Below, in pieces: positions 2,189-24,357 of a DNA stretch of 36,743 bases; position 1 is the stretch's first letter; every line of letters starts with the position of its first letter. The stretch is taken from positions 1 through 36,743 of the forward strand of contig PEUB01000077.1 in NCBI GenBank assembly GCA_002780895.1, read 5' to 3'. This DNA comes from Nitrospirae bacterium CG02_land_8_20_14_3_00_41_53 (GTDB lineage: Bacteria > Nitrospirota > Thermodesulfovibrionia > Thermodesulfovibrionales > SM23-35). The notes under the pieces are model-generated. The model was not told where the DNA came from. It saw only the letters and a list, made by a program, of their open reading frames with translations, and ran no database searches. The position numbers were made by a program, and so were the translations under genes.

Positions 2189-3574
2189 TCATAACGCCCG
2201 CTTAATTTCCATTTTCAAAAACCTCTTTGTCTCATCTGATACCTTAAATCTTTCATCTCCTCTGAAGCCTGTGACCCATACAATATCGTTCCCTGACACA
2301 ACTATCGGTATTGAATCCCGTTCATCTCTCGGAACTTTTTCATCCACAAAATAGTCCTGGAGTTTCTTTCTTTTTCCAAATCCAATGGGATAGAAGAAAT
2401 CACCATGCTCCCTTGATCTAACAGTAAGTACAGTTCCTGTTTTATCTGCATCAAATACAGCCATTGTCTTTCCATCTCCATAACTTTCTACTTTATCTAC
2501 TACGGATGCTTTTATCACGGCCCTGCTTTCCTTCAAAACAACCTCCCCGGGCACATTTAGTGTAAAGGTCCCCAATCTCAGAGGAATTTCGGATGTAATC
2601 ACCAGTGTTGAATAATTCTTTATAACCCTTAGTCCCCTTGGAAGATAAATCCTGTCTCCTTGCCTTCCCTGTTTTATTAGATCAATTATGCCTTCTATAT
2701 GAATGAATTCCATACCTCTAAGACCTTTTGCAGCATCTACGGCCCTTCTCAAAACCCTTCTGAGTATAACCTTATCCATTGCCTCCAATGGTGTAAGAAA
2801 TAACTCCATGCGAAAATCGGTCTTCCTGCATATTAACTTCATCAGGGTCTTTGTAATAATGAGTTCAAAATATTTTTCTTCTTCTCTTAATATCTCCATT
2901 GTTCGTGATACAGTTTGTGCGATATGAGGGTTAATCTTTTTAATTTCAGGGATGAATGCGAGTCTGATCCTGTTTCTGAGGTAATCTTTTTTGAGATTTG
3001 ATGAATCAGTAATGTAGTTAATTTTCTGTTCATGAAGGAATTCTTCAATTTCCATACGCTCAATCTCAATCAAAGGCCGGATGATATTCCCTCTTACTGG
3101 CGGGATCCCTGAAAGCCCTGTTGGGCCTGATCCTCTGAAAAATCTCATGAAAAATGTTTCGAGCTGGTCATCTGCTGTATGGCCTAATGCGATTTTGTGC
3201 GCCTTGATCTCATAAGCTGTTTCTTCGAAAATCCTATAACGCAATTCCCTTGCAGCTTCCTGCTTGTTCAGACCTTGTTCTTTTGAATAGGTCTTTACAT
3301 CAATGACTTTTGTAGTAAAAGGAATGGAAAGACCCGCACAAAGTTTTTTACAGAACTCTGTCTCTTCCGGTGTTTCTTCTGGCCTCAGGCCATGGTCAAT
3401 ATATACTGTATATAAGTCGAGCATGAACTTATTCTTAAGATTATTAAGCACATTCAGGAGACATACTGAATCAGGCCCTCCTGATAGCCCTATAAGAATT
3501 TTTTCTTTTCCAGAAAGCATAGAGTATTTTTTGATGGTGGCGGTTACTTTGTTAGTTAATTCTGGAAACGACAT
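2189..3574 (-). CDS. tilS: tRNA(Ile)-lysidine synthase
   Basis: 461 residues. TilS attaches lysine to C34 of the CAU-anticodon tRNA-Ile using ATP, converting it to an AUA reader. The N-type ATP pyrophosphatase loop SGGPDS is at residues 31-36. It is followed by the HTADDQLETFFMRFFRG region typical of TilS and then a substrate-binding domain. The C-terminal domain (about 375-455) contains TVRSREHGD and the KKLQDYFVDEKVPRDERD segment that marks the TilS C-terminal fold. The ATG at 3574 is 3 bp after the HNH gene stop, so the two are co-transcribed. Full-length TilS normally has this N, substrate-binding and C domain order. Confidence 0.95.
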   Translation of the reverse strand: MSFPELTNKVTATIKKYSMLSGKEKILIGLSGGPDSVCLLNVLNNLKNKFMLDLYTVYIDHGLRPEETPEETEFCKKLCAGLSIPFTTKVIDVKTYSKEQGLNKQEAARELRYRIFEETAYEIKAHKIALGHTADDQLETFFMRFFRGSGPTGLSGIPPVRGNIIRPLIEIERMEIEEFLHEQKINYITDSSNLKKDYLRNRIRLAFIPEIKKINPHIAQTVSRTMEILREEEKYFELIITKTLMKLICRKTDFRMELFLTPLEAMDKVILRRVLRRAVDAAKGLRGMEFIHIEGIIDLIKQGRQGDRIYLPRGLRVIKNYSTLVITSEIPLRLGTFTLNVPGEVVLKESRAVIKASVVDKVESYGDGKTMAVFDADKTGTVLTVRSREHGDFFYPIGFGKRKKLQDYFVDEKVPRDERDSIPIVVSGNDIVWVTGFRGDERFKVSDETKRFLKMEIKRAL

Positions 3575-3577
3575 GTC

Positions 3578-3883
3578 TCAACTCCAGGAATCCTTCTTTA
3601 ATCTTTCGAGGTATTCTTCCCATTCAATCGGCAAGAGATATTTCTTCTTGCTGTTGCATTCCTTGCAGGCGGGAACGAGATTCCCCTTGGACGATTTACC
3701 ACCCCGTATTATAGGAACTACATGTTCCATCGTAAGTTCTTTTGGAGATACTTTTTTTCTACAGAAATAGCAAACGCCTTCTGCACATTTCCTCTTCCAC
3801 CACTGGGATTTTCTGAGCGATTGTGCCTTTACCTTTTCCCTTTTTATCTCTTCTTCAGAGACATATGGAATAAAAGGTTCCAT
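3578..3883 (-). CDS. HNH endonuclease family protein
   Basis: 101 residues from the ATG at 3883. A GTG at 3919 would add 12 residues but would overlap ybaB. A charged N-terminal part is followed by a compact HNH/McrA-type zinc fold: CYFC, then EHVVPI with the first catalytic His, GGKSSKGNLVPAC and CKECNSKK, so two CxxC pairs hold a zinc ion around the metal-binding site. Such small proteins are metal-dependent DNA nucleases, but many chromosomal copies have no known substrate. It lies between ybaB and tilS with 3 bp to tilS, in a block otherwise devoted to translation and replication. That placement hints at a housekeeping role, but no specific function can be stated. Confidence 0.85.
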   Translation of the reverse strand: MEPFIPYVSEEEIKREKVKAQSLRKSQWWKRKCAEGVCYFCRKKVSPKELTMEHVVPIIRGGKSSKGNLVPACKECNSKKKYLLPIEWEEYLERLKKDSWS

Positions 3884-3896
3884 AAGATATTTTAAC

Positions 3897-4232
3897 CTAA
3901 AAAAGCTTACCCAGGCCACCTAATCCTGGCAACTGTAATCCTCCGGTTAGTTTTGACATCTCGCTGTTTACCATCTCCTGTGCGCGGCGCAAAGCCTCAT
4001 TAACTGCTGCCAAGATAAGGTCCTGGAGCATTTCAACATCATCTGGATTAACAACATCCTTTTCAATTTTTATTGAAATAATATCCCCTGCTCCACTTGC
4101 TACAGCAGTAACCATGCCGCCACCTGCAGTTGCCTCAACTGTTTTTTTCTTTGCCTCTTCCTGCATCTTCGCCATTTCGGTCTGAAGCTTCTGGGCTTGG
4201 CGCATTATATCTCCAAGCATCTTTTTTGACAT
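3897..4232 (-). CDS. ybaB: YbaB/EbfC nucleoid-associated protein
   Basis: 111 residues from the ATG at 4232, chosen over an upstream in-frame start at 4271 because GGAGGATGAT directly precedes it. The start [17 protein letters not shown] and the helical segment [20 protein letters not shown] fit the YbaB fold, a small dimeric DNA-binding protein. The middle [20 protein letters not shown] is the second family helix, and the glycine/leucine-rich tail ([11 protein letters not shown]) is usual. The dnaX-ybaB-(recR) order is widely conserved in bacteria. Here recR is absent directly downstream and an HNH gene follows instead. Confidence 0.93.
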
Positions 4233-4261
4233 ATCATCCTCCATTATTTCAGAATACAGAT

Positions 4262-4335
4262 CCAAGAACACAGCACACAGATTTGAAACAAATTTAAGAA
4301 TCTCTGTCTTCTGTCTTCTGTCCTCTGTGTTCTGA
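4262..4335. repeat. TCTGT-rich inverted repeat covering the dnaX stop
   Basis: AGAACACAG (4265-4273) and CTGTGTTCT (4325-4333) form an inverted repeat around TCTGTCTTCTGTCTTCTGTC-type short direct repeats. The dnaX stop codon and its last 10-13 codons (reading [11 protein letters not shown]) lie inside it, so the C-terminal end of the DnaX protein is encoded by repeat DNA. It could act as an RNA hairpin between dnaX and ybaB. No T-tract marks it as a terminator. Confidence 0.5.
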
Positions 4336-5880
4336 TATCGGTGTTACATCCACAATCCTCCCCTCGAAAAGTTCAAGGGCCTCTTTAATAGCTGGTTCTG
4401 CCATCACTTCTTCCTTCAAATCTTTTTTACGGATTGTCTTTTTCTTTGCAGTTTCTACTTCTATCTCTATTTTACTTCCAAGTTCTTCTGAGAAGATTTG
4501 TTCTATTAATGCTGTATTCTTTTTAATAGAATCTGCAAAAAGTGAATCTCCTCCGTTAAGGGTAAGAATCAGTTTATCTCCAGCAAGTTTGAATGTTGCC
4601 TTTGATATTTTTGAGGCAAGTGGCGGCACCATCTTTTTTATGGCCCTGTCCCACATTTCATCTGTGACAGTTCTACCCTCTAATCGGTTTTCCTCAGATT
4701 CCTTCAAAGTATATGCAGGGGACGATACAGTATCAAGCTTTATATATTTCTCTATGTTTTCCATAAGCTCTTTCAGAGGTTTAATGCCACTCAGAAAACT
4801 TGCCTTTATGAGAGCCATCTCAAAGGTAAGGCTTGGTGATGATGCATTTCTCACATCAACCTCTGCTTTCAATAATTCTGAGAGCAGAAGGGTAAGCTGA
4901 TCTTCGGATGTCTTTAACAGGATATCCTTAATGATATCCATCTCCTCTTTACTCAGGTCAAGTATTTCCTCAGGCTTTTTCACAATACTTGCAACAAGCA
5001 TATCCCTGAAAAACTGAATAAGCTCTTTGGTAAAAGATCTGATATCAGTGCCTTTTTCCACGAGTTCTCCTGAAATCTTAAGTATCTCCTCTCTTTTCCC
5101 TTCAATCAGTGCTGCTGAGAGTTGAGAAAGGAACCCAAAATCTGCTATTCCAAGGAGGTCTTTAACATCAGACTCTTTTATATCAGATGAAAAAGATGAT
5201 ATCTGATCCAGGATTGTGAGTGAATCTCGCAGGCTTCCGTCTGCAGCCCTCGCGATCATTTCAATGGCAGGCCCAGAAATATTGATACCCTCGGCATCCG
5301 ATACCTTTTTTAACCTCTCCTTTATATTTTGTTTGGGTATCCTCCTGAAAGGCAGGTGCTGACAACGTGAAAGTACGGTCGGAGGGATCTTTTTTGGGGC
5401 TGTTGTAGCAAGGACAAAGACAACATGAGGTGGTGGTTCTTCAAGGGTTTTTAACAGTGCGTTAAATGCAGCATCAGATAGCATATGAGTTTCATCAATG
5501 ATGTAAACCTTATATCTACCACCTGAAGGGACATATTTCACCCTTTCCCTGAGGTCTCTTATATCATTAACGCTGTTGTTCGATGCACCGTCTATTTCCA
5601 TCACGTCTAGAGAATAACCGTCTGTTATCGAAGTGCAAAATGTACATGTACCGCATGGAGTAGATGTTGGGCCATCTTTACAGTTTAGTGCCTTTGCGAG
5701 TATCCTTGCTGCAGAGGTTTTACCAACCCCTCTTGGGCCGGAGAAGAGATAAGCATGTGCAATTTTTCCCTGATCTATCGAATTTTTAAGAAGACGTATT
5801 ATGGGTTCCTGACCGATAAGGTCATCAAACGCCTGAGGTCTCCATTTTCTTGCTAAAACTAAATAGCTCATATCTTTCAC
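4294..5880 (-). CDS. dnaX: DNA polymerase III subunit gamma/tau
   Basis: 528 residues. This AAA+ ATPase is the motor of the clamp loader that puts the beta sliding clamp on primed DNA. Walker A GPRGVGKT is at residues 48-55, zinc-finger cysteines at 67, 76, 79 and 82, and the Walker B segment IIDETHML at 127-134. The arginine-finger region [12 protein letters not shown] follows, and then domain III. The C-terminal part is short for a tau form and ends in a repeat-encoded tail. No well-placed slippery heptamer for programmed frameshifting could be identified. The gene starts 13 bp after the SRP RNA and precedes ybaB. An internal ATG 9 bp downstream (residue 4) is an alternative start. Confidence 0.95.
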
Positions 5881-6170: not shown

Positions 6171-7604
6171 TTACGCAGAAAGCCTTTTCTTTAGTAACTC
6201 ATTCACCATCTGAGGATTTGCTTTTCCTTTTGTTAGCTTCATTACCTGCCCTACAAAGAAACCTATGAGCTTTTCCTCACCTGCTTTGAATCTTTCAACC
6301 TCTTTTGGATTCTTTGCGATCACTTCATCCACCACCTTCTCTAATGATCCCGCATCACTTATTTGCACAAGACCTTTTTCCTTAACTATAACATCTGCAC
6401 CCCTGCTACTCTTATACATTTCTTCGAAGACCGTCTTTGCTATCTTCCCGCTAATTGTGCCGTTTTCTATAAGATTGAGCATGCTGACAAGCTGCTTTGG
6501 TTTTAAAGGACACTCTTCGATTGATTTATTTTCTACATTTAATAGTCTCAGTAGGTCACTCATAATCCAGTTAGAAACAGCTTTAGGTTGGCCCCCGAGT
6601 TTCACTGCATCTTCAAACCAATCAGCAAGGGCTTTTTCCGAGGTAAGAAAATCTGCATCTTCTTCAGGAAATCCATATACTGAAACAAAACGCTCCATTT
6701 TTATGCCGGGCAATTCTGGTAGGGATGACTTTATCTTATCAATCCATTCTTGTTCAACCATTATAGGCACAAGGTCAGGTTCTGGAAAATAGCGGTAGTC
6801 ATGAGCTTCTTCCTTTACGCGCATGGATTCTGTAATCCCCCTGCTTGCATCCCATAACCTCGTTGATGAAACGTTTATTCCGCCTTCTTCTTCAATGACC
6901 CTTATCTGCCGTTTAATCTCATATTCCAATGCTTTTTCCACGAACTTGAACGAATTAATGTTTTTTACCTCTGTCCTTATGCCGTATTCTTTCTGCCCAA
7001 CGGACCTTACAGATACATTCGCATCACATCGGAGAGAGCCCTGTTCCATATTCCCGTCACAGACACCGAGATACCTGAGGATGGTTCTGAGTTTTTTCAT
7101 ATACTCTACTGCTTCCCCAGAGCTTCTTATATCCGGTTCGGAGACGATTTCCATAAGCGGTACCCCAGCCCTGTTTAAATCTACAAAACTATAATTACCT
7201 GTACCCTCATGGATGTTTTTTCCTGCATCTTCTTCCATGTGAATTCTTGTAATACCAACTTTTTTAATATTACCGTCAACAACTATTTCAGTATATCCAT
7301 GCTCACATATTGGAAGCTCGTACTGACTTATCTGGTATCCCTTTGGAAGATCAGGATAAAAATAATTCTTTCTTGCAAACCTGCTGTATGGAGAAATTCT
7401 GCATTTCATTGCAAGGCCGGTTTTTATAGTAAACTCAAGGGCCTTTTTGTTCAATACAGGAAGCACGCCTGGCATTCCAATACATACCGGGCATGTCTGT
7501 GTATTGGGTTCAGAGCCGAATTTTGTTGAACAGCCGCAAAATATCTTTGTGTCTGTCAGCATCTGTGCATGAACCTCAAGACCGATAACCGCTTCGTATC
7601 TCAT
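6171..7604 (-). CDS. gatB: Asp/Glu-tRNA amidotransferase subunit B
   Basis: 477 residues. GatB binds and phosphorylates Glu-tRNA-Gln (or Asp-tRNA-Asn) so that ammonia from GatA can amidate it. The start [14 protein letters not shown] is the classical N-terminus. The zinc-site cysteines FCGCSTKFG and CPVCIGMPG follow, then the cradle domain with [12 protein letters not shown] and [12 protein letters not shown]. The C-terminal YqeY-like tRNA-binding domain ends at [15 protein letters not shown]. The ATG at 7604 gives an ATGA overlap with gatA and has GGAGG about 10 bp upstream. An in-frame ATG 24 bp earlier would start inside gatA and lacks that spacing. gatC is not adjacent. Confidence 0.96.
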
Positions 7605-9064
7605 AGGTCTGGCCTCCTCCTGTGCCATTCGGTGCTCTGCTCATAGGCATATGCGACTTTTAAAATAGACTCTTCATCAAAATGTCTTCCGATCAACTGT
7701 AGCCCGATCGGTAGATTATTTGAGGTAAAGCCGCAAGGTATAGAAACCCCTGGAACTCCGGCAAGATTAACCGAAATTGTAAATATGTCAGACAGATACA
7801 TCTGGAGAGGGTCAGCGGTCTTTTCGCCAATTTTAAATGCAGTAGTTGGTGATGTTGGGGTAACAATGACGTCCACCTTTCTGAATGCTTCTTCAAAGTC
7901 TCTTTTGATTAACGTCCTCACCTGCTGTGCCTTCTTATAATATGCCTCGTAGTATCCGGATGAAAGGGCATAAGTGCCGAGCATTATTCTCCTTTTGACT
8001 TCGGCACCAAATCCCTGTGCCCTTGTATTCATATACATCTCCATTAAATCCCTCCCCTCTGCCCTGAAGCCGTATTTCACACCATCATAGCGTGCAAGGT
8101 TAGATGATGCCTCTGAGGTCGCAAGGACATAATAGGTTGCAACCGCAAATCCGGTATGCGCTAGAGATACCTCAACAGGGATTGCACCGAGTGATTCAAG
8201 TTTTTTTATAGCCTCTTTTACTGATAACTCAACTTCTTTATCCATCCCTTCAATAAAATATTCATTTGGAATTCCGAGCCTCATACCCTTTATATCCTTG
8301 CCGAGGACTGCTGTAAAATCAGGTAGATGAACAGGCGCTGATGTGGAGTCAAGAGGGTCATGGCCTGAAATAACATTCATTAATATCGCAGAATCTCTTA
8401 CATTTTTTGTAATCGGCCCTATCTGATCAAGTGATGAGGCAAAGGCAAGAAGGCCATATCTTGACACCCGGCCATAAGTTGGCTTTAACCCGACAACCCC
8501 GCATAGAGCCGCCGGCTGCCTGATTGAACCCCCTGTATCAGAACCCAGCGCGGCAATACATTCATCTGCAGCAGCAGCAGCAGCAGAACCGCCGCTTGAA
8601 CCTCCTGGAATTCTTTCAAGACTCCATGGATTTTTTGTTGTATGGAAGCCTGAATTCTCTGTTGATGAGCCCATTGCAAACTCATCCATATTTGTCTTCC
8701 CGATAAGTATGTACCCATGCTCGACGAGTCGCGATGTGGCGGTACTTTCATACGGCGGCACAAAATTCTTTAGTATTTTCGATGCGCAGGTTGTGGGTAT
8801 ACCCTTTGTGCACATATTATCCTTGATAGCAAGCGGAATCCCGAGTATGGATATAGTTTTTTGTGTTTCTCCTTGATTAATCCTCTTCTGCGCCTCGTCA
8901 GCCATTTTCATGGCTCTATCTTTTGTTATGGTAACAAATGCCCTTACATTCTCCTCAACAGCATCTATCCTCTGATAGATTGAATTGACTATATCCTTAG
9001 CTGATATTTCTTTTTTATCGAGCAGTTCTCTTATTTCTGAAATCCCGAACCTGAATAATTCCAA
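7601..9064 (-). CDS. gatA: Asp/Glu-tRNA amidotransferase subunit A
   Basis: 487 residues. GatA is the amidase-signature subunit that hydrolyses glutamine and passes ammonia to GatB. The Ser-cisSer-Lys triad is visible: K81 in AIKDN, S156 in GGSSGGS and S180 in GSDTGGS. The start is a TTG at 9064 preceded by a purine-rich AAAGGGGGA. The first residues [20 protein letters not shown] match the family N-terminus, and the only nearby ATG is out of frame. It leads the minus-strand block and is divergent from rnhA, with a strong candidate promoter upstream (9094-9122). gatC, the small third subunit, is not seen in the window. Confidence 0.96.
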
Positions 9065-9093
9065 GACATCCCCCTTTGACCCTTATGTGTAAT

Positions 9094-9122
9094 ATAATAT
9101 ATTCTGATTGTATTGAAGTCAA
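9094..9122 (-). promoter_or_regulatory. Candidate sigma-70 promoter for gatA block
   Basis: On the minus strand, TTGACT (9117-9122) and TATTAT (9094-9099) are separated by exactly 17 bp in an AT-rich stretch. A start site near 9087 would give a leader of about 22 nt to the TTG of gatA. This is the first good promoter upstream of the whole gatA-gltX run. It was read by eye. Confidence 0.55.
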
Positions 9123-9254
9123 AGCACGAAAAGAGGCAGGTATCCTGCTTGACAAATTTTCAATAGATTTATCAAGTTAATCAGCTTAAGGTGGATTAAA
9201 TAAATTTTTTGAACAATGTCTGCATTATTCAGGTTAAAATAACGGGAAGTTCCA

Positions 9255-9713
9255 ATGAAGAAGAACGAGAAACCATTTGTAGAAATTTTTGCGGATGGTG
9301 CCTGCAGTGGCAACCCGGGTGTAGGTGGTTATGGTGCTATTTTGAGGTCCGGCACCAGTGAAAAGGAACTTTCTGGATGTGCCTCTATGACTACAAACAA
9401 CCGCATGGAACTGACAGCGATTATTAAAGCGCTTGAAGCCCTGAAAAAACCTTGCAAGGTCAGGATAGTTACCGATTCAAATTATGTTGTTCAGGGTATG
9501 ACGTCATGGGTTTTTAGATGGCTTAAAAATGGCTGGAAAACCAGTCAGAAACATAATGTTATAAACCAGGACCTCTGGGAGAGACTCCTTAATCTCTCAA
9601 ATCTTCATGATATTAAATGGGAGTGGATAAAAGGGCATAATGACCACCCCGAGAATGAAAGATGCGATAAACTTGCAAGGCTTGCAATAAAGAGATGCAA
9701 GAAAAATAAGTAA
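9255..9713 (+). CDS. rnhA: Ribonuclease HI
   Basis: 152 residues, typical of bacterial RNase HI, which cuts the RNA strand of RNA-DNA hybrids. The DEDD active site is present: D14 in [12 protein letters not shown]52 in NNRMELTA, D74 in VTDSNYV and D138 in ERCDKLA. The handle segment with [14 protein letters not shown] is the basic protrusion of E. coli-type enzymes. H129 in WIKGHND is the catalytic loop histidine. The stop codon at 9711-9713 overlaps the first bases of a GC-rich palindrome. Confidence 0.96.
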
Positions 9714-14788: not shown

Positions 14789-14936
14789 TAACGGTCTCAT
14801 AATTGAATAGACATTTACCTTAAAATCTCCCCTCGCCCCTCTTTGCCAAAGAGGGGAAATCCTCCCTTTAGCAAAGGGAGGTAAGGAGGGATTTTCTTAT
14901 ATTGTGTAATTCTTATTATGAGACCCTTAATAACGG
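14785..14936. mobile_element. MITE-like element at the hom stop codon
   Basis: TTAATAACGG occurs at 14785-14794 and again at 14927-14936 as a 10-bp direct repeat. Just inside lie inverted repeats GGTCTCATAAT (14793-14803) and ATTATGAGACC (14915-14925). The interior (14824-14900) contains two GC-rich palindromes with CTTTGCCAAAG-type and CTTTAGCAAAG-type centres, the same family seen elsewhere here. The structure of direct repeat, terminal inverted repeat, non-coding core, terminal inverted repeat and direct repeat is that of a miniature inverted-repeat transposable element of about 130 bp. The hom stop TAA (14786-14788) is part of the left direct repeat. No transposase with matching ends is present. 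Confidence 0.6.
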
Positions 14937-20384: not shown

Positions 20385-20425
20385 TGCCCTGGAAAATCTT
20401 CCTTCCCCGCCCGCAATGAATAAAT

Positions 20426-20494
20426 AACGTTCTCGGCTAAAAAAAGTCCCGCCGATGGCGGGATTTGGATGCTAATCTTTTAGACTGTGTTATC
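20426..20494 (-). other. attC-like site A (after Phd gene)
   Basis: On the minus strand, GATAACAC (20487-20494) and GTTATT (about 20423-20428) bracket inverted arms: CTAAAA with TTTTAG further in, and a CCCGCC-ATC-GGCGGG tip. The TAA stop of the antitoxin gene lies in the R''-like box, as often happens in cassettes. The total is about 70 bp. This is the 3' border of the four-unit array, next to apgM. Confidence 0.55.
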
Positions 20495-20768
20495 GGACGT
20501 GTGCCAAACGTTTTGGTTTTTCAAGCCGCCGACGCATTTCTTCTGTAGAAATTCCACCTTCAGATTTCTGTCTCGACCTTGACCGTTCGATTAAAGCAAT
20601 AAACTTCGGATTGTTGCTTAAGGACACGGTTTCCACATCTGCATTGGTTATCCTTACCAAGGCCGCCACTGGTTTGCCTCCTTTCATAATAATAAACGGT
20701 TCCTTTTTAACCTTTTTTGCGTAATTTGACAGAGGCAGTGTAGCCTTAGCAAATTCAACGGTTTTCAT
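20490..20768 (-). CDS. Phd/YefM-type antitoxin
   Basis: 92 residues. The N-terminal half (KTVEFAKATLPLSNYAKKVKK, then PFIIMKGGKPVAALVRI) is the Phd/YefM DNA-binding fold. The C-terminal half is charged and probably disordered until it wraps the toxin. It should neutralise the RelE/ParE-like toxin encoded just upstream and repress the pair. The start overlaps the toxin stop by ATGA, so the toxin comes first, the reverse of most phd-type pairs. The stop codon lies inside attC-like site A. Together with the toxin gene it fills one cassette. Confidence 0.85.
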   Translation of the reverse strand: MKTVEFAKATLPLSNYAKKVKKEPFIIMKGGKPVAALVRITNADVETVSLSNNPKFIALIERSRSRQKSEGGISTEEMRRRLEKPKRLAHVR

Positions 20769-21064
20769 AATTTTATCACCTCTTTCCCAATTCTAACATT
20801 ATTTCTCTCTTTGATTCCAATGGCTCGGATATAAACAACATGTTCCGGATCATCTTCGATATCATAATAAACGCGGAGATTGCCGATTCGCAACTCCCAC
20901 GGAGCGATTGGATTAGGACGCATAGGTTTACGATTCCTTGTTTCAACAGCAGGCTGATATTGCAGTTGTCCTTCAACTGTGTCAAGAACAGTCACCTGCT
21001 GGCGCGTTGTAAGGATGCGAAAATGATCTTCGGTGTCTGGGGAATATTCAATTCGATATTTCAA
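20765..21064 (-). CDS. RelE/ParE-superfamily toxin
   Basis: 99 residues. The pattern YRIEYSPDTEDHFRILTTRQQVTVLDTVEGQL, then KPMRPNPIAPWELRIGNLRVYYDIE and VVYIRAIGIKERNNVRI, is the RelE/ParE fold: an N-terminal helical hairpin and a C-terminal sheet with WELRIGNLRVYY as the core strand pair. Members either cut mRNA on the ribosome or poison gyrase, and which applies here cannot be decided. It is paired with the downstream Phd-like antitoxin by a 4-bp overlap. The gene begins 49 bp after attC-like site B, consistent with cassette structure. Confidence 0.85.
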   Translation of the reverse strand: MKYRIEYSPDTEDHFRILTTRQQVTVLDTVEGQLQYQPAVETRNRKPMRPNPIAPWELRIGNLRVYYDIEDDPEHVVYIRAIGIKERNNVRIGKEVIKL

Positions 21065-21112
21065 TCAAAATATCCTTTCAAATCGGCGGCAGATGTTTGG
21101 CACATGTACGAT

Positions 21113-21178
21113 AACGTGTTCCGTTGCAAAAGAAGCCCTAAAGGTTTGGACGTTAGTCTTTTGCAATGTGTTAGCCGT
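21113..21178 (-). other. attC-like site B (after mazF)
   Basis: TTGCAAAAGA (21126-21135) and TCTTTTGCAA (21159-21168) are a perfect 10-bp inverted repeat. Outside them, on the minus strand, lie GGCTAACAC (about 21170-21178) and CGTTATC (21112-21118) as R''/R'-like boxes, separated from the stem by short unpaired spacers. This is the layout of an attC. About 80% of its bases match site D (22414-22476). Confidence 0.6.
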
Positions 21179-21205
21179 CCGTTGCAGACACAGAAAAGTC
21201 TTTTA

Positions 21206-21538
21206 TCATTTCCGTATAATTTCAACTACCTTTTCAATAATCTCATTGAGCTTGATGACTGTAAGATTGCCAACTTTATAGAGAATAATATGACTATCTG
21301 CCGTAAATATACGGTTAGGTCTTATGTTACTTGGCTGTTTTAGACTTCCAGTTTCAAAGTCTTTATCATTAAGTGAGATTGCATAAGTGTCTTCAATAGA
21401 TTGACTGGTTATCTGGCAAAGAATCAGATCATCACCCTCTAATTTTGAAATGACTAAGGCAGGACGTCTTTTGGCTTGGGTTAAGTCAGAAAAAGGGAAA
21501 GGAACAACAACGACATTGCCTTTTACAAACTTTGCCAC
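21206..21538 (-). CDS. PemK/MazF-family toxin
   Basis: 110 residues. The start FVKGNVVVVPFPFSDLTQAKRRPALVI is the MazF SH3-like barrel with the RRPALV signature. ILCQITSQ follows, then SNIRPNRIFTADSHII and a C-terminal helix NEIIEKVVEIIRK. MazF toxins are sequence-specific mRNA endonucleases. The start overlaps the antitoxin gene by 16 bp. The unit lies between attC-like sites B and C. The stop is 28 bp before site B on the minus strand. Confidence 0.88.
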   Translation of the reverse strand: MAKFVKGNVVVVPFPFSDLTQAKRRPALVISKLEGDDLILCQITSQSIEDTYAISLNDKDFETGSLKQPSNIRPNRIFTADSHIILYKVGNLTVIKLNEIIEKVVEIIRK

Positions 21539-21717
21539 GCCTCATCTTCCTCTGGTCTTAGCCAATCTTTCTTGAGAGAAGACTCGCTTGCGATGGCAAT
21601 GTCAAGTCTTTCCTTTATTATCTTTGTCTTTAGAAAGTGGACGAAGTCCAACACTTCATCAAGAAAAGGCTCTGGAACTTGCTCAATCTCGTTTATAAGT
21701 AATTCCTTTTTACTCAT
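21523..21717 (-). CDS. Small antitoxin of the mazF pair (DUF2281-like)
   Basis: 64 residues: MSKKELLINEIEQVPEPFLDEVLDFVHFLKTK followed by an acidic tail LKKDWLRPEEDEAWQSL. The helical N-terminal segment with a P-x-x-x-L-x-E-V-L-D-F pattern is common in small antitoxins placed before PemK/MazF-like toxins. The tail ending in W probably docks on the toxin. GGGAGG lies about 6 bp before the ATG at 21717. The gene begins 34 bp after attC-like site C. The family name is a pattern match only. Confidence 0.75.
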   Translation of the reverse strand: MSKKELLINEIEQVPEPFLDEVLDFVHFLKTKIIKERLDIAIASESSLKKDWLRPEEDEAWQSL

Positions 21718-21750
21718 CGACGCCTCCCTTTCTAATCGGTTATAGCAATT

Positions 21751-21814
21751 ATAACAAATTAAAAGCTGATAAAGTAAAAGGACTTCTCATGTCTTTTTTG
21801 GCTTGTTGTTAGCC
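21751..21814 (-). other. attC-like site C (after the unknown gene)
   Basis: The minus strand shows GGCTAAC (21808-21814) and GTTATAA (21749-21755) around weaker inverted arms (AAAAAGAC, then GTCCTTTT). It has the same spacing to neighbouring genes as sites A, B, D and E. The sequence just outside (GTTAGCCGCC then GTTGCAG) resembles the matching position at site B. It is the least regular of the internal sites. Confidence 0.45.
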
Positions 21815-21852
21815 GCCAGTTGCAGGCATCTTTAAATAGGAGAACACATTTT

Positions 21853-22380
21853 TTATTTTCTTGTGTTATTTAGGTTTGACGTCTTTTGTATTACAAATGT
21901 CAATAAACAAGTCTGACCCCCTTTGGTCTCACAAGTTTCGAGTAATATGCGGTCTTTACCTGATAATAGTAGCTTTACATTCTTATAATTATCCTTGACG
22001 ACAACATTATAATGTGATGAAAAACCACTACTGAATTTAATATTAGATTCAGATTGTCCTCTTTGAATGACAAAATGCTGCCCTTTTTTTAATCCAATAA
22101 ACTCAGCTTGATTTTGAGTAAGAATAATGTTCCATTTCTTAGCTGATCTAAAAGATTTTTTTTGAATGCCTTCAATTTTTATCTCTTCCATATTTCCTAC
22201 TCTTACTACTTTTTTCTGAGGAGGAAGTGCTGCGCCTCGTTCTATGAGTAATTGTTTTATAGCTTCAAATGCCTCTTCGGAATATTGTTCTTTATTATTT
22301 CCCTCCCATATTTTAAGCAATTCTTCGGTGCTTTTAGATTCCATATTTGAATGAATCTGTTGAATTAATTTTAAATTCAT
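21853..22380 (-). CDS. Uncharacterised cassette protein, 175 aa
   Basis: 175 residues from the ATG at 22380, which follows AAGGAG by 8 bp. A TTG start further upstream would lie inside attC-like site D. Residues about 10-55 (STEELLKIWEGNNKEQYSEE, FEAIKQLLIERGAALPPQ) are a short helical motif seen at the ends of many unrelated proteins. The rest (about 70-170) is beta-rich with VRVGNMEEIKIEGIQKK and GLKKGQHFVIQRG. No signal peptide, membrane span or catalytic motif is seen, and I do not recognise the domain. It forms a single-gene cassette between sites C and D. Cassette proteins of unknown fold are common. Confidence 0.75.
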   Translation of the reverse strand: MNLKLIQQIHSNMESKSTEELLKIWEGNNKEQYSEEAFEAIKQLLIERGAALPPQKKVVRVGNMEEIKIEGIQKKSFRSAKKWNIILTQNQAEFIGLKKGQHFVIQRGQSESNIKFSSGFSSHYNVVVKDNYKNVKLLLSGKDRILLETCETKGGQTCLLTFVIQKTSNLNNTRK

Positions 22381-22413
22381 TTTATCTAACTCCTTCCTGC
22401 CCGCACTGAGCAG

Positions 22414-22476
22414 ATAACGTTCCCGTTGCAAAAGAAGCCCGAAGGGTTTGTCCGTTAGTCTTTTGCAGCGTGTTAT
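22414..22476 (-). other. attC-like site D (after the nuclease gene)
   Basis: TTGCAAAAGA (22426-22435) pairs with TCTTTTGCA (22459-22467). An inner GCCC-GAAG-GGGT tip is visible. On the minus strand AATAACAC (22469-22476) and GTTATC (22413-22418) are the R''/R'-like boxes. It is nearly a copy of site B, including the unpaired spacer GTTAGTC. Confidence 0.6.
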
Positions 22477-22502
22477 TTGAATGCGGCGGCGAAGTCCCTT
22501 TT

Positions 22503-23083
22503 CTATTTTTTAGAACCTGCCCAAATCCCAATGCCCCGCTGCTGTGCGTCGCTCTCCAGTGCCTGAAGGCGCTCCACGTACACTTTCGATTTCTCGCCAG
22601 TCGGCAATTTTACAATCACGCCCTTTGTCCGTGCCAATCCCATGCTGACCAGAATCTCCGCAAGCCCCTTCCCATCAATCTCGATGAATCCATAGTATCG
22701 CAGCACCCTGCTTCGCCTTGTGCAGTAGCCCAACGCGTCCACACGACAAAAGGTTTTTGCAAAATATCGCGTACGGCCTCCTTCGCTTTTACTCCAGCCT
22801 TCATGGTCTCGTCCAATGTTACTCCAAAGTGCTCGCTCTGCTCACGTGTGCGCTCCGCATAGCGCAAATTGGTCTCAGGCGCATCGACAAAATATAGCCG
22901 GAAAATATACTCGTCAGTGCCGCACTTGACACCAAAACTGTCTCCGTCGTTGTATTTCTGCGCCACATACTGGCAATCGGTCAGCTTTACCCATTCCTTT
23001 TTATCTGCCGCTTCAGCCTCGCAATAAGCGAAGATTAGCAACATCCATATTACTTGCGTTACTACTGTCCGTATCGGTCTCAT
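22503..23083 (-). pseudogene. Secreted thermonuclease-like (SNase) protein, frameshifted
   Basis: The first frame (23083 to about 22720) encodes a signal peptide (MRPIRTVVTQVIWMLLIFAY, cleaved after about CEAEA) and the SNase core DGDSFGV, then IFRLYFVDAPETN and the segment KPFVVWTRW. One base appears to be missing near 22715-22720, after WATAQG. Continuity resumes in another frame with RSRVLRYYGFIEIDGKGL and LVSMGLARTKG, ending in GIGIWAGSKK. Both parts belong to one OB-fold nuclease. AGGAGG precedes the ATG. As written the nuclease loses its C-terminal half. A sequencing or assembly error is an alternative to true decay. It is the fourth cassette-like unit. Confidence 0.8.
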
Positions 23084-23123
23084 TGTCGGTGCCTCCTAAC
23101 TTATTTTCCTCGCCGCCATTTCA

Positions 23124-23168
23124 TATAACGGGCGAAATGGAGCGAAGCGACATTTTGCGTATCTCGTT
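23124..23168 (-). other. Degenerate attC-like site E
   Basis: On the minus strand CGTTATA (23124-23130) is a good R'-like box and GGCGAAATG (23131-23139) pairs with CATTTTGCG (23151-23159). The outer partner box is altered to GAACGAG (about 23162-23168). The nuclease ATG is 41 bp further on, matching the 34-49 bp gaps at the other sites. It marks the 5' border of the array next to the broken recombinase. Confidence 0.4.
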
Positions 23169-23231
23169 CACAATTGCACTCAGGTACAACTTTTGTCCGA
23201 AAAATAGAATGAAAGTTGCACCACGGTGCGG

Positions 23232-24099
23232 TTATTTCACTTCTGGCCGCAGAGCGGCTTCTCCTTCCTCTTCATTTCTTTTGCCTCTATCACCTCCTTC
23301 AATATCCAGGTTATCCAAAGGGCTTCTTATTCTGCCTATGCTCATAGTACTCACATGGGTGTAGATTTCAGTCGTCTTGCTGCTCGCATGTCCAAGTAAT
23401 TCCTGAATATACCGAAGATCGGTTCCACATCCCTCCGTAGTAGAACTTGAGAGCATTTATCGCCTGGTTGAGTGTAGCAGTCGCGGATTCCTTCTCTTCG
23501 GCGAGATATACGAGGTAATCCTTTATGTCGCTTTCCCGAACATCGGCAGTCTCCTTCTTAATGAAACTTAGAAAGTCCCTATTGTAATAAATATATCCTT
23601 TGACTGTTTTGTAGCTGTATTTCCTTGAGACAAGTTCTCTACGTAGGTCCTCAAAATTGTGTTCTATAACGATTGTGGAATTATTTTTATCGGAAAATCC
23701 CCCCTCGCCCCCCTTTTCCAAAGTGGGGAAGTGAGAAGGTTTTGCTAAAGTGGGGTTTTGTCTGATAGAAGAATTTGAAAGCTCAGCTTGCAGGGCAGGG
23801 TCTACCCTCGCACTTATAGAAAGTGCGGGGTCTATCTGGATCTCTTCATCCTTAAAGGCTTCAAGAATCTTCTCCAGAGTTCCATTATCATCCGGAAAGC
23901 TCCAGTATTTTTCTTCCGGATGCCATCTGCGGCCTGCAACGGCACGGATTTTCTCGACAAATGCCGGATTGAATGGAAATAAAACTGTTATTTTATCCTG
24001 CAATGCTGCCTTATTTATGGTTATTACCCCATTTGCAATATCCCCCTGAGGAAAGGATTTATGAGTAATTATTCCTTTTTTGTAGAGATACAGATACAT
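23232..24099 (-). pseudogene. Tyrosine recombinase with deleted catalytic core
   Basis: The first frame (24099 to about 23440) has a HARP-like motif, LFPFNPAFVEKIRAVAGRRW, then HPEEKYWSFPDD. A repeat-encoded linker follows, then a phage-integrase SAM-like N-domain ([49 protein letters not shown]). Similarity jumps, in another frame, straight to [20 protein letters not shown] and IYTHVS, the C-terminal end with the last active-site His and Tyr. About 120 residues holding the first Arg and the HxxR motif are missing. The core-binding part resembles IntI and XerC. It lies beside the attC-like array on the same strand as the cassettes. Confidence 0.8.
23694..23760. repeat. GC-rich palindromic repeat inside the recombinase
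   Basis: AAAATCCCCCCTCGCCCCCC on the plus strand pairs loosely with the later AAAGTGGGG segments around TTTTCCAAAG and TTTGCTAAAG centres. On the minus strand it is translated as THREE-to-four turns of a Pro/Gly-rich linker including PSHFPTLEKGGEGGFSDK, between the HARP-like and SAM-like domains. It belongs to the repeat family at 9712, 14208, 14824 and 24218. Confidence 0.7.
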
Positions 24100-24160
24100 A
24101 AAATAGTAATTCTGAATGCTATCAATCTAAAGCTAATGATGTCTGACAATGGTGCGGGGT

Positions 24161-24230
24161 TTACAGTTTTATAGCTGTATTTTCTGGAGAGGAGTTCTCG
24201 GCGGAGGTCTTCAAAAGCTAACTCCCCTTG
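24161..24230 (-). pseudogene. Fragment of a second tyrosine recombinase
   Basis: The minus strand reads FEDLRRELLSRKYSYKTV, almost identical to residues FEDLRRELVSRKYSYKTV of the recombinase 560 bp away. DNA similarity ends at both sides (about 24161 and 24217). Upstream is a GC-rich palindrome, as at the matching place in the longer copy. It is a remnant of a duplicated or earlier recombinase and cannot be expressed as an enzyme. Confidence 0.7.
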
Positions 24231-24280: not shown

Positions 24281-24357
24281 ATAAGGGTTTGAATGGTCTA
24301 ATTATTGATTAAAACCCTTGCGGTGTCAAGGGATTTTCTCGACCGGGAAGAAAGGGT

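What the first reader, a model, noticed from the sequence alone, without database searches (positions are those of the whole stretch)
20426..23168. Four-unit gene-cassette array with attC-like sites and no working integrase nearby
Four consecutive minus-strand units of about 640-710 bp each hold one gene or one toxin-antitoxin pair and are each followed by a palindromic site with AAC/GTT outer boxes, unpaired spacers and inverted inner arms (A 20426-20494, B 21113-21178, C 21751-21814, D 22414-22476; E 23124-23168 is the 5' border). Genes begin 34-49 bp after each site. Stops lie within 0-40 bp before the next. Sites B and D are near copies. This is the architecture of an integron cassette array of the CALIN type. 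Such arrays are unusual to see in the apparent host lineage.
Basis: partly seen in the sequence, partly recalled or inferred. Interest (0 to 1): 0.78.

Follow-up and report, generated by a model that had tools for sequence, protein, structure and literature searches.

The report
Cassette array behind a non-IntI recombinase
The stretch is a genuine but decayed integron-type array of small mobile gene cassettes, and its platform enzyme is not the usual integron integrase but a different Xer-type recombinase that sits upstream of similar arrays in many related bacteria, including one complete genome in which no ordinary integron integrase was found.

Summary
The four-unit cassette array is real. 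A covariance model trained only on sites from other genomes finds sites A, B and D (E 1e-9 to 3e-19). Site C is decayed and not above chance; E is not an attC site but lies at the attI/cassette-1 junction. "No integrase nearby" is wrong: a broken recombinase gene (23232-24099, minus) lies directly upstream, reading toward the array. It is not IntI. Intact relatives are XerA-like tyrosine recombinases with a HARP-like N-terminal domain. They lack the IntI-specific insertion and fall outside a 100%-supported IntI clade. Across the order (Nitrospirota, Thermodesulfovibrionia), 12 of 12 loci holding both this gene ("HARP-Xer") and detected attC sites have every site downstream on the same strand (25/25), typically behind an attI-like dyad. 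One complete genome has HARP-Xer, attI and two attCs, and no IntI was found in it. The window's first cassette recurs at two other platforms with junctions exactly at G^TT. Best reading: remnant of an integron whose integrase is HARP-Xer, a type that IntI-based tools would label CALIN. I found no description of it in an open-access library. Recombination itself is inferred; IntI acting in trans remains the main rival.

The parts
24301..24329 (-). sigma70-type promoter of the recombinase gene: TTGACA (24329-24324), 17 bp, AATAAT (24306-24301)
   Evidence: 11/12 consensus match with 17-bp spacing, conserved upstream of HARP-Xer in C115, G018:C16, G018:C90 and G009 copies, intact or broken; activity not tested
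24160..24216 (-). second partial copy of a recombinase segment (FEDLRRELLSRKYSYKTV)
   Evidence: 81% DNA repeat of 23600-23656
23368..24099 (-). HARP-Xer remnant, N-terminal HARP-like + SAM domains (residues ~11-176 of the intact relative)
   Evidence: PF13495 60.5 bits; tblastn 53% to L107 protein
23232..23456 (-). HARP-Xer remnant, C-terminal ~40-60 residues in another frame (catalytic R, K and HxxR lost; H and Y retained)
   Evidence: junction at a GGAGG microhomology read from the sequence
23163..23231 (-). attI-like site (two dyads ending GTGAACGAG)
   Evidence: 98% identical to the C115 copy over a 254-bp block that ends at this point; dyads change sequence yet stay palindromic in 15 copies
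23129..23162 (-).
   Evidence: absent in C115; related sequence follows attI in G005:C151
22418..23128 (-). cassette 1: staphylococcal-nuclease-like gene, frameshifted, plus attC D
   Evidence: PF00565; same cassette as 4th in C115 and 1st in G108:C125, junctions at G^TT
22412..22478 (-). attC site D
   Evidence: R2 blind 89.9 bits, E 3e-19
21755..22417 (-). cassette 2: 175-aa protein of unknown family, plus degraded attC C
   Evidence: no Pfam match
21749..21814 (-). site C, decayed attC (R'' box and part of the arm)
   Evidence: R1 5.4 bits, E 2.8
21115..21754 (-). cassette 3: VapB/DUF2281-like antitoxin + PemK/MazF-like toxin, plus attC B
   Evidence: PF02452 39.8 bits, PF10047 25.0 bits (just under cut-off); homologous unit beside attC-like sites in G041 and without attC in four other genomes
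21109..21176 (-). attC site B
   Evidence: R2 blind 75 bits, E 1e-15
20427..21114 (-). cassette 4: ParE-like toxin + Phd/YefM-like antitoxin, plus attC A
   Evidence: weak Pfam matches 18.3 and 17.6 bits, below cut-off
20422..20495 (-). attC site A, end of the array
   Evidence: R2 blind 49.5 bits, E 1e-9
20385..20426 (-). right-hand part of the original attI/insertion site (TTATTTATTCATTGCGGGC...)
   Evidence: conserved at the same apgM-aspartokinase junction in G009 (L025), which also holds a recombinase relic

Best explanation
The window holds a decayed integron of a type whose integrase is HARP-Xer, a XerA-like tyrosine recombinase, and not IntI. Organisation: promoter, HARP-Xer gene, attI-like dyad site about 110 bp after its stop, then cassettes reading in the same direction, each ending in an attC hairpin. 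HARP-Xer would recombine the attC of a circular cassette with attI (G^TT), stacking new cassettes at attI, where read-through from the recombinase promoter could express them. Shown: the attC sites, the array, the co-directional coupling across genera and families, the conserved attI dyads, absence of the IntI-specific insertion, tree position, a cassette found at three platforms with exact junctions, and a complete genome without IntI. Inferred: that HARP-Xer performs the recombination, that a folded single strand is the substrate, and that the promoter drives the cassettes. In the window the enzyme has lost its catalytic core, so the array is fixed unless an enzyme elsewhere acts in trans.
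For: Blind attC model hits A, B, D. attC helices covary: 44 double-change cells against 19.6 in shuffles and at most 9 when slid. HARP-Xer remnant abuts attI and the array. 12 of 12 loci holding both HARP-Xer and detected attC sites have every site on the same strand and downstream, 25/25. attI-like dyads just before the first cassette in 15 aligned copies, arms changing in concert. Complete genome G030: HARP-Xer + attI + attCs at L195 4188-4264 (weak, 18 bits) and 5719-5812, while the TIGR02249 search returns only HARP-Xer itself. IntI insertion absent in all HARP-Xer and present in all IntI; IntI clade 100/100, HARP-Xer outside it at 94/98; NF040815 XerA 241 bits over its 220 cut-off, TIGR02249 216 bits under its 265 cut-off. 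The nuclease cassette sits at three platforms with breaks at G^TT. No R2-type attC near the intact IntI genes examined. The apgM-aspartokinase gap is 0-130 bp in most of the ~45 relatives where both genes lie on the locus, 4.0 kb here.
Against: No recombination was observed. The window's own genome has two intact IntI genes on other contigs, and genomes where IntI but no HARP-Xer was seen (G011, G014, G016) also hold R1-type attC sites, so this attC type is not exclusive to HARP-Xer. Most genomes are draft MAGs. Two of about ten HARP-Xer loci with enough downstream sequence (L202, L203) gave no attC. Some of the 12 loci were fetched because of their attC hits.
Confidence: 0.78

Rival explanations
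1. Ordinary CALIN: cassettes were placed here by a true IntI acting in trans (C15 or C55 in this genome), and the Xer-like gene is a bystander whose 3' flank happens to offer a secondary site.
For: Two intact IntI in the genome; R1-type attC also in genomes where only IntI was seen.
Against: The same side and strand of HARP-Xer is used in 12 of 12 loci of several families; attI-like dyads there are conserved and covarying; no IntI was found in G030 (complete), G018 or G108 although they hold arrays behind HARP-Xer; no R2-type attC beside the intact IntI genes.
Confidence: 0.15
2. HARP-Xer is the cargo: a mobile recombinase gene that inserts upstream of existing arrays, its 'attI' being its own integration site.
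For: The whole block is an insertion between apgM and the aspartokinase gene relative to most relatives; the recombinase is multicopy in some genomes.
Against: Arrays end at the HARP-Xer attI with varying first cassettes but the same junction; an insertion beside a pre-existing array would not create exact attI/cassette G^TT junctions in every copy.
Confidence: 0.05
3. Chance palindromes or REP-like repeats between unrelated small genes.
For: Sites C and E do not score as attC.
Against: Blind model E 1e-9 to 3e-19 for A, B, D, helix covariation, a cassette shared with exact junctions.
Confidence: 0.02

Closest known systems
Chromosomal integron with IntI (class 1 and sedentary chromosomal integrons)
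   Same: Tandem genes or toxin-antitoxin pairs each ending in an attC with R''/L''...L'/R' boxes and G^TT crossover; attI beside a tyrosine recombinase; cassettes shared between arrays.
   Different: Recombinase lacks the IntI-specific additional domain and lies outside the IntI clade; the gene reads toward the array; attC outer arms appear to continue past the R boxes in many sites (GCCYGCAA ... TTGCGGGC).
Inverted-integrase integrons (e.g. Spirochaetota)
   Same: Integrase transcribed in the cassette direction with attI after its 3' end.
   Different: Those integrases are IntI, a sub-clade within the IntI tree identified by the additional domain (PMC8352920); HARP-Xer has no such domain.
CALIN elements (clusters of attC lacking integron-integrase)
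   Same: Several attC sites with no IntI next to them.
   Different: A dedicated recombinase remnant and attI are attached; the CALIN label would be an artefact of the IntI-specific search model.
XerA / XerC-XerD family (NF040815, 4A8E, 5HXY)
   Same: Catalytic domain and SAM domain; best curated match above cut-off; 4A8E is the top fold match, IntI4 second, on a model of low overall confidence.
   Different: Extra N-terminal HARP-like domain (weak Pfam hit), multicopy, coupled to cassette arrays; no dif-like pairing was looked for.
Bacteroidota 'site-specific tyrosine recombinase/integron integrase' on plasmids and the Acinetobacter TnpF/xerD next to tet(X3)
   Same: 39-56% identical, no IntI insertion, followed co-directionally by small genes; attC-like hairpins visible in Pontibacter pls1.
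   Different: Not recognised by the Nitrospirota attC models; followed up only partly.

Membership tests
Integron cassette array (attC-bounded cassettes) | attC sites that fold into the R/L hairpin | tested here: met
   Blind model hits A, B, D; helix covariation; site C not met
Integron cassette array (attC-bounded cassettes) | Cassettes move as units bounded at G^TT | tested here: met
   Nuclease cassette at three platforms with breaks at G^TT
IntI integron | Adjacent integrase with the IntI-specific additional domain | tested here: not met
   Absent in all intact HARP-Xer relatives; the window copy is deleted across that region
IntI integron | Integrase falls within the IntI clade | tested here: not met
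   Tree: IntI 13 rows 100/100; HARP-Xer outside
IntI integron | attI site at the platform | tested here: inconclusive
   attI-like dyad with conserved junction found; recombination not tested
CALIN | Two or more attC sites with no IntI nearby | tested here: met
   Three attC sites, no TIGR02249 protein over cut-off on contig C122
XerA-type recombinase (NF040815) | Score over the curated cut-off | tested here: met
   Intact relative L107: 241 bits vs 220; the window remnant itself is truncated
Integron in the functional sense | Recombinase catalyses attC x attI recombination | not testable with these tools
   needs a bench assay

The most novel reading that the evidence does not exclude
HARP-Xer platforms are an independent, IntI-free integron system used by Nitrospirota and, through its 39-56% identical relatives, by Bacteroidota plasmids. 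Xer-type recombinases have then gained cassette capture separately from IntI (or IntI arose from such an enzyme), and genes such as tet(X), found right behind a truncated xerD of this group, may have been cassettes of it.
Probability: 0.35. Interest if true: 0.92.

Novelty: new variant of a known kind. Interest (0 to 1): 0.8.

Why it matters
Integrons are defined and searched for by IntI and its extra domain. If a Xer-type recombinase without that domain runs the same cassette system, then many arrays labelled CALIN have an undetected integrase, the extra domain is not required for attC use in general, and the origin of integrons from Xer recombinases becomes testable with living intermediates. 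It may also identify a cassette reservoir in phyla counted as integron-poor.

Tried and rejected
First pattern search for attC copies used wrong spacing and found nothing. Rfam gathering search gave no attC family. The idea that three recombinase remnants share one exact deletion point was dropped: the window junction lies about 15 bp before that of C115 and shows a GGAGG microhomology. The idea that site E is an attC was dropped. The AlphaFold model of the intact relative is poor overall (pLDDT 61.5; only the N-terminal domain, residues about 10-80, is good), so fold ranks are weak support. A 45-49% identical Xer group (L205-L208) has no detected attC nearby and forms its own clade, so it was treated as an outgroup.
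Full report
What was asked. The finding claims four cassette-like units at 20426-23168 on the minus strand, attC-like sites, and no integrase nearby. Coordinates, unit sizes, start and stop distances are right. The host is a Nitrospirota (Thermodesulfovibrionia) draft genome of 2.0 Mb in 159 contigs.

The attC sites. I built a covariance model (R1) from eight sites of this genome and searched the family: 11 of 20 genomes hold matches, 15 of them in this genome on seven contigs. A second model (R2) was trained on 22 sites from other genomes only, and thus is blind to the window. It finds A, B and D with E 1e-9, 1e-15 and 3e-19 and nothing else in the window beyond weak reverse-strand echoes. 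The two helices (R boxes, L arms) covary across the 22 sites: 90% of cells paired, 44 cells with changes on both sides against 19.6 in shuffles and 9 at most in slid controls. A strict structural scan recovers two of the three class 1 integron attCs of a plasmid used as control. Site C is not above chance (5.4 bits, E 2.8): its GTT box overlaps a TTGTTATAATTG sequence that also precedes non-cassette copies of the same toxin-antitoxin operon.

The cassettes move. Cassette 1 (nuclease-like) is also the fourth cassette on contig C115 (92-98% identical) and the first cassette behind a recombinase platform in G108, a different family (98% over the 131 bp before the contig ends). In all three the homology begins at the same G^TT. 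Cassette 3 has a homologue in G041 beside attC-like sites, while in several other genomes it lies outside arrays, with its own promoter-like sequence. In the window cassette 1 is frameshifted.

The missed recombinase. Directly upstream of the array, in the same direction, lie the N-terminal (23368-24099) and C-terminal (23232-23456) parts of a tyrosine recombinase with its core deleted. C115 carries a second broken copy; the C-terminal piece plus attI is 98% identical over 254 bp, and the identity stops at the end of attI, where C115 goes straight into its own first cassette and the window continues with the 34-bp insert and then cassette 1. The intact relative in G015 (L107) is a 380-aa protein with a HARP-like N-terminal domain (weak, 13.9 bits), a SAM_4 domain and a Phage_integrase domain with R229, K254, H319, R322, H345 and Y354 invariant in nine relatives. 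I call it HARP-Xer, to avoid confusion with Helicobacter XerH.

It is not IntI. NF040815 (XerA) scores 241 bits over its cut-off of 220; TIGR02249 (integron integrase) scores 216, below 265, and the match is split. Against IntI4 (2A3V) the alignment breaks over IntI4 residues 180-244, which include the additional domain. All nine HARP-Xer sequences lack that stretch and all intact IntI aligned have it. In the tree, 13 IntI form one clade (100/100) on a branch of length 1.98 and HARP-Xer (94/98) lies outside. Published work treats that domain as defining and as the search key (PMC9668308, PMC8352920, PMC2426708).

It is coupled to the arrays. In the order search I took the flanks of the HARP-Xer copies. 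In 12 loci where both HARP-Xer and attC hits are present, all 25 sites lie downstream on the same strand. Some of these loci were chosen for attC hits, others for HARP-Xer; in the second group eight of about ten loci with enough downstream sequence had attC sites. About 110 bp after the stop codon there is an attI-like sequence with two dyads whose arms differ between copies (GCACC..GGTGC, ATCCGAA..TTCGGAT, GTCGTCTA) but remain palindromic, ending in most copies in AAC(G/A)AG before TTA of the first cassette. A TTGACA-17-AATAAT promoter is kept upstream in several intact and broken copies.

IntI as an alternative. The window's genome has two intact IntI genes (C15, C55), so IntI could act in trans. 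Against this, G030 is a complete single-contig genome with HARP-Xer, attI and two attCs (one strong, one of 18 bits), where the TIGR02249 search at 1e-30 returns only HARP-Xer itself; G108 and G018 likewise lack IntI hits. None of the intact IntI loci inspected has an R2-type attC nearby; one has a classical attC divergent from the gene. On the other side, R1-type sites occur in genomes where only IntI was seen (G011, G014, G016), so the substrate may be shared.

History of the locus. apgM and the aspartokinase gene are separated by 0-130 bp in most of the ~45 relatives in which both lie on the fetched locus, with a few longer gaps, and by 4.0 kb here. G009 (L025) keeps a 723-bp relic at the same place, with the middle of a HARP-Xer gene and the same left and right borders. 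So the platform was probably inserted before these genera split and has decayed differently in each.

Literature. Nine searches of an open-access library found no description of an integron with a recombinase lacking the IntI domain. This is not a proof of novelty: subscription papers and preprints were not searched.

Wider lead. Bacteroidota plasmid proteins 39-48% identical to HARP-Xer, also without the IntI insertion, precede co-directional runs of small genes, and a Pontibacter plasmid shows attC-like hairpins there. A truncated relative sits just upstream of tet(X3) in an Acinetobacter plasmid. I regard this as a lead, not a result.

Verdict. A real cassette array, the remnant of an integron variant with a Xer-type integrase. 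The coupling and anatomy are shown by comparison; the enzymatic step is inferred.

Noticed in passing
L221 (Pontibacter plasmid pls1) 7146-12200; L220 (Chryseobacterium plasmid) 7000-9400: Bacteroidota relatives of HARP-Xer are followed co-directionally by small genes separated by attC-like hairpins (e.g. L221 11506-11559); IS110-family elements lie within or next to both runs.
   Followed up: partly
L222 (Acinetobacter pJAT2044) 2967-4988: A truncated xerD/TnpF-type gene 56% identical to HARP-Xer lies 190 bp upstream of tet(X3), with an attC-like half site after the gene; tet(X) may once have been a cassette.
   Followed up: no
L011 (G000:C25) 46-334: A true IntI remnant in which the N-terminal part is joined directly to the last ~40 residues (REIQELLGH...), the same kind of core loss as in the two HARP-Xer remnants.
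   Followed up: no
window 23129-23162 and L110 (G005:C151): A hairpin-forming sequence ATACGCAAAATGTCGC...CTCCATTT follows attI in two genera; it may be an empty cassette or part of an older attI.
   Followed up: partly
attC sites of G000 and relatives, e.g. L012 9209-9302: In many sites complementarity continues about 12 bp beyond the R boxes (GCCYGCAA ... TTGCGGGC), so the outer arm reaches into the next cassette's start.
   Followed up: partly
window 14814-14858 and about 23686-23730: A short C-rich repeat shared by the region just after the homoserine dehydrogenase gene and the recombinase linker; it also recurs on other contigs (L012, L014).
   Followed up: no
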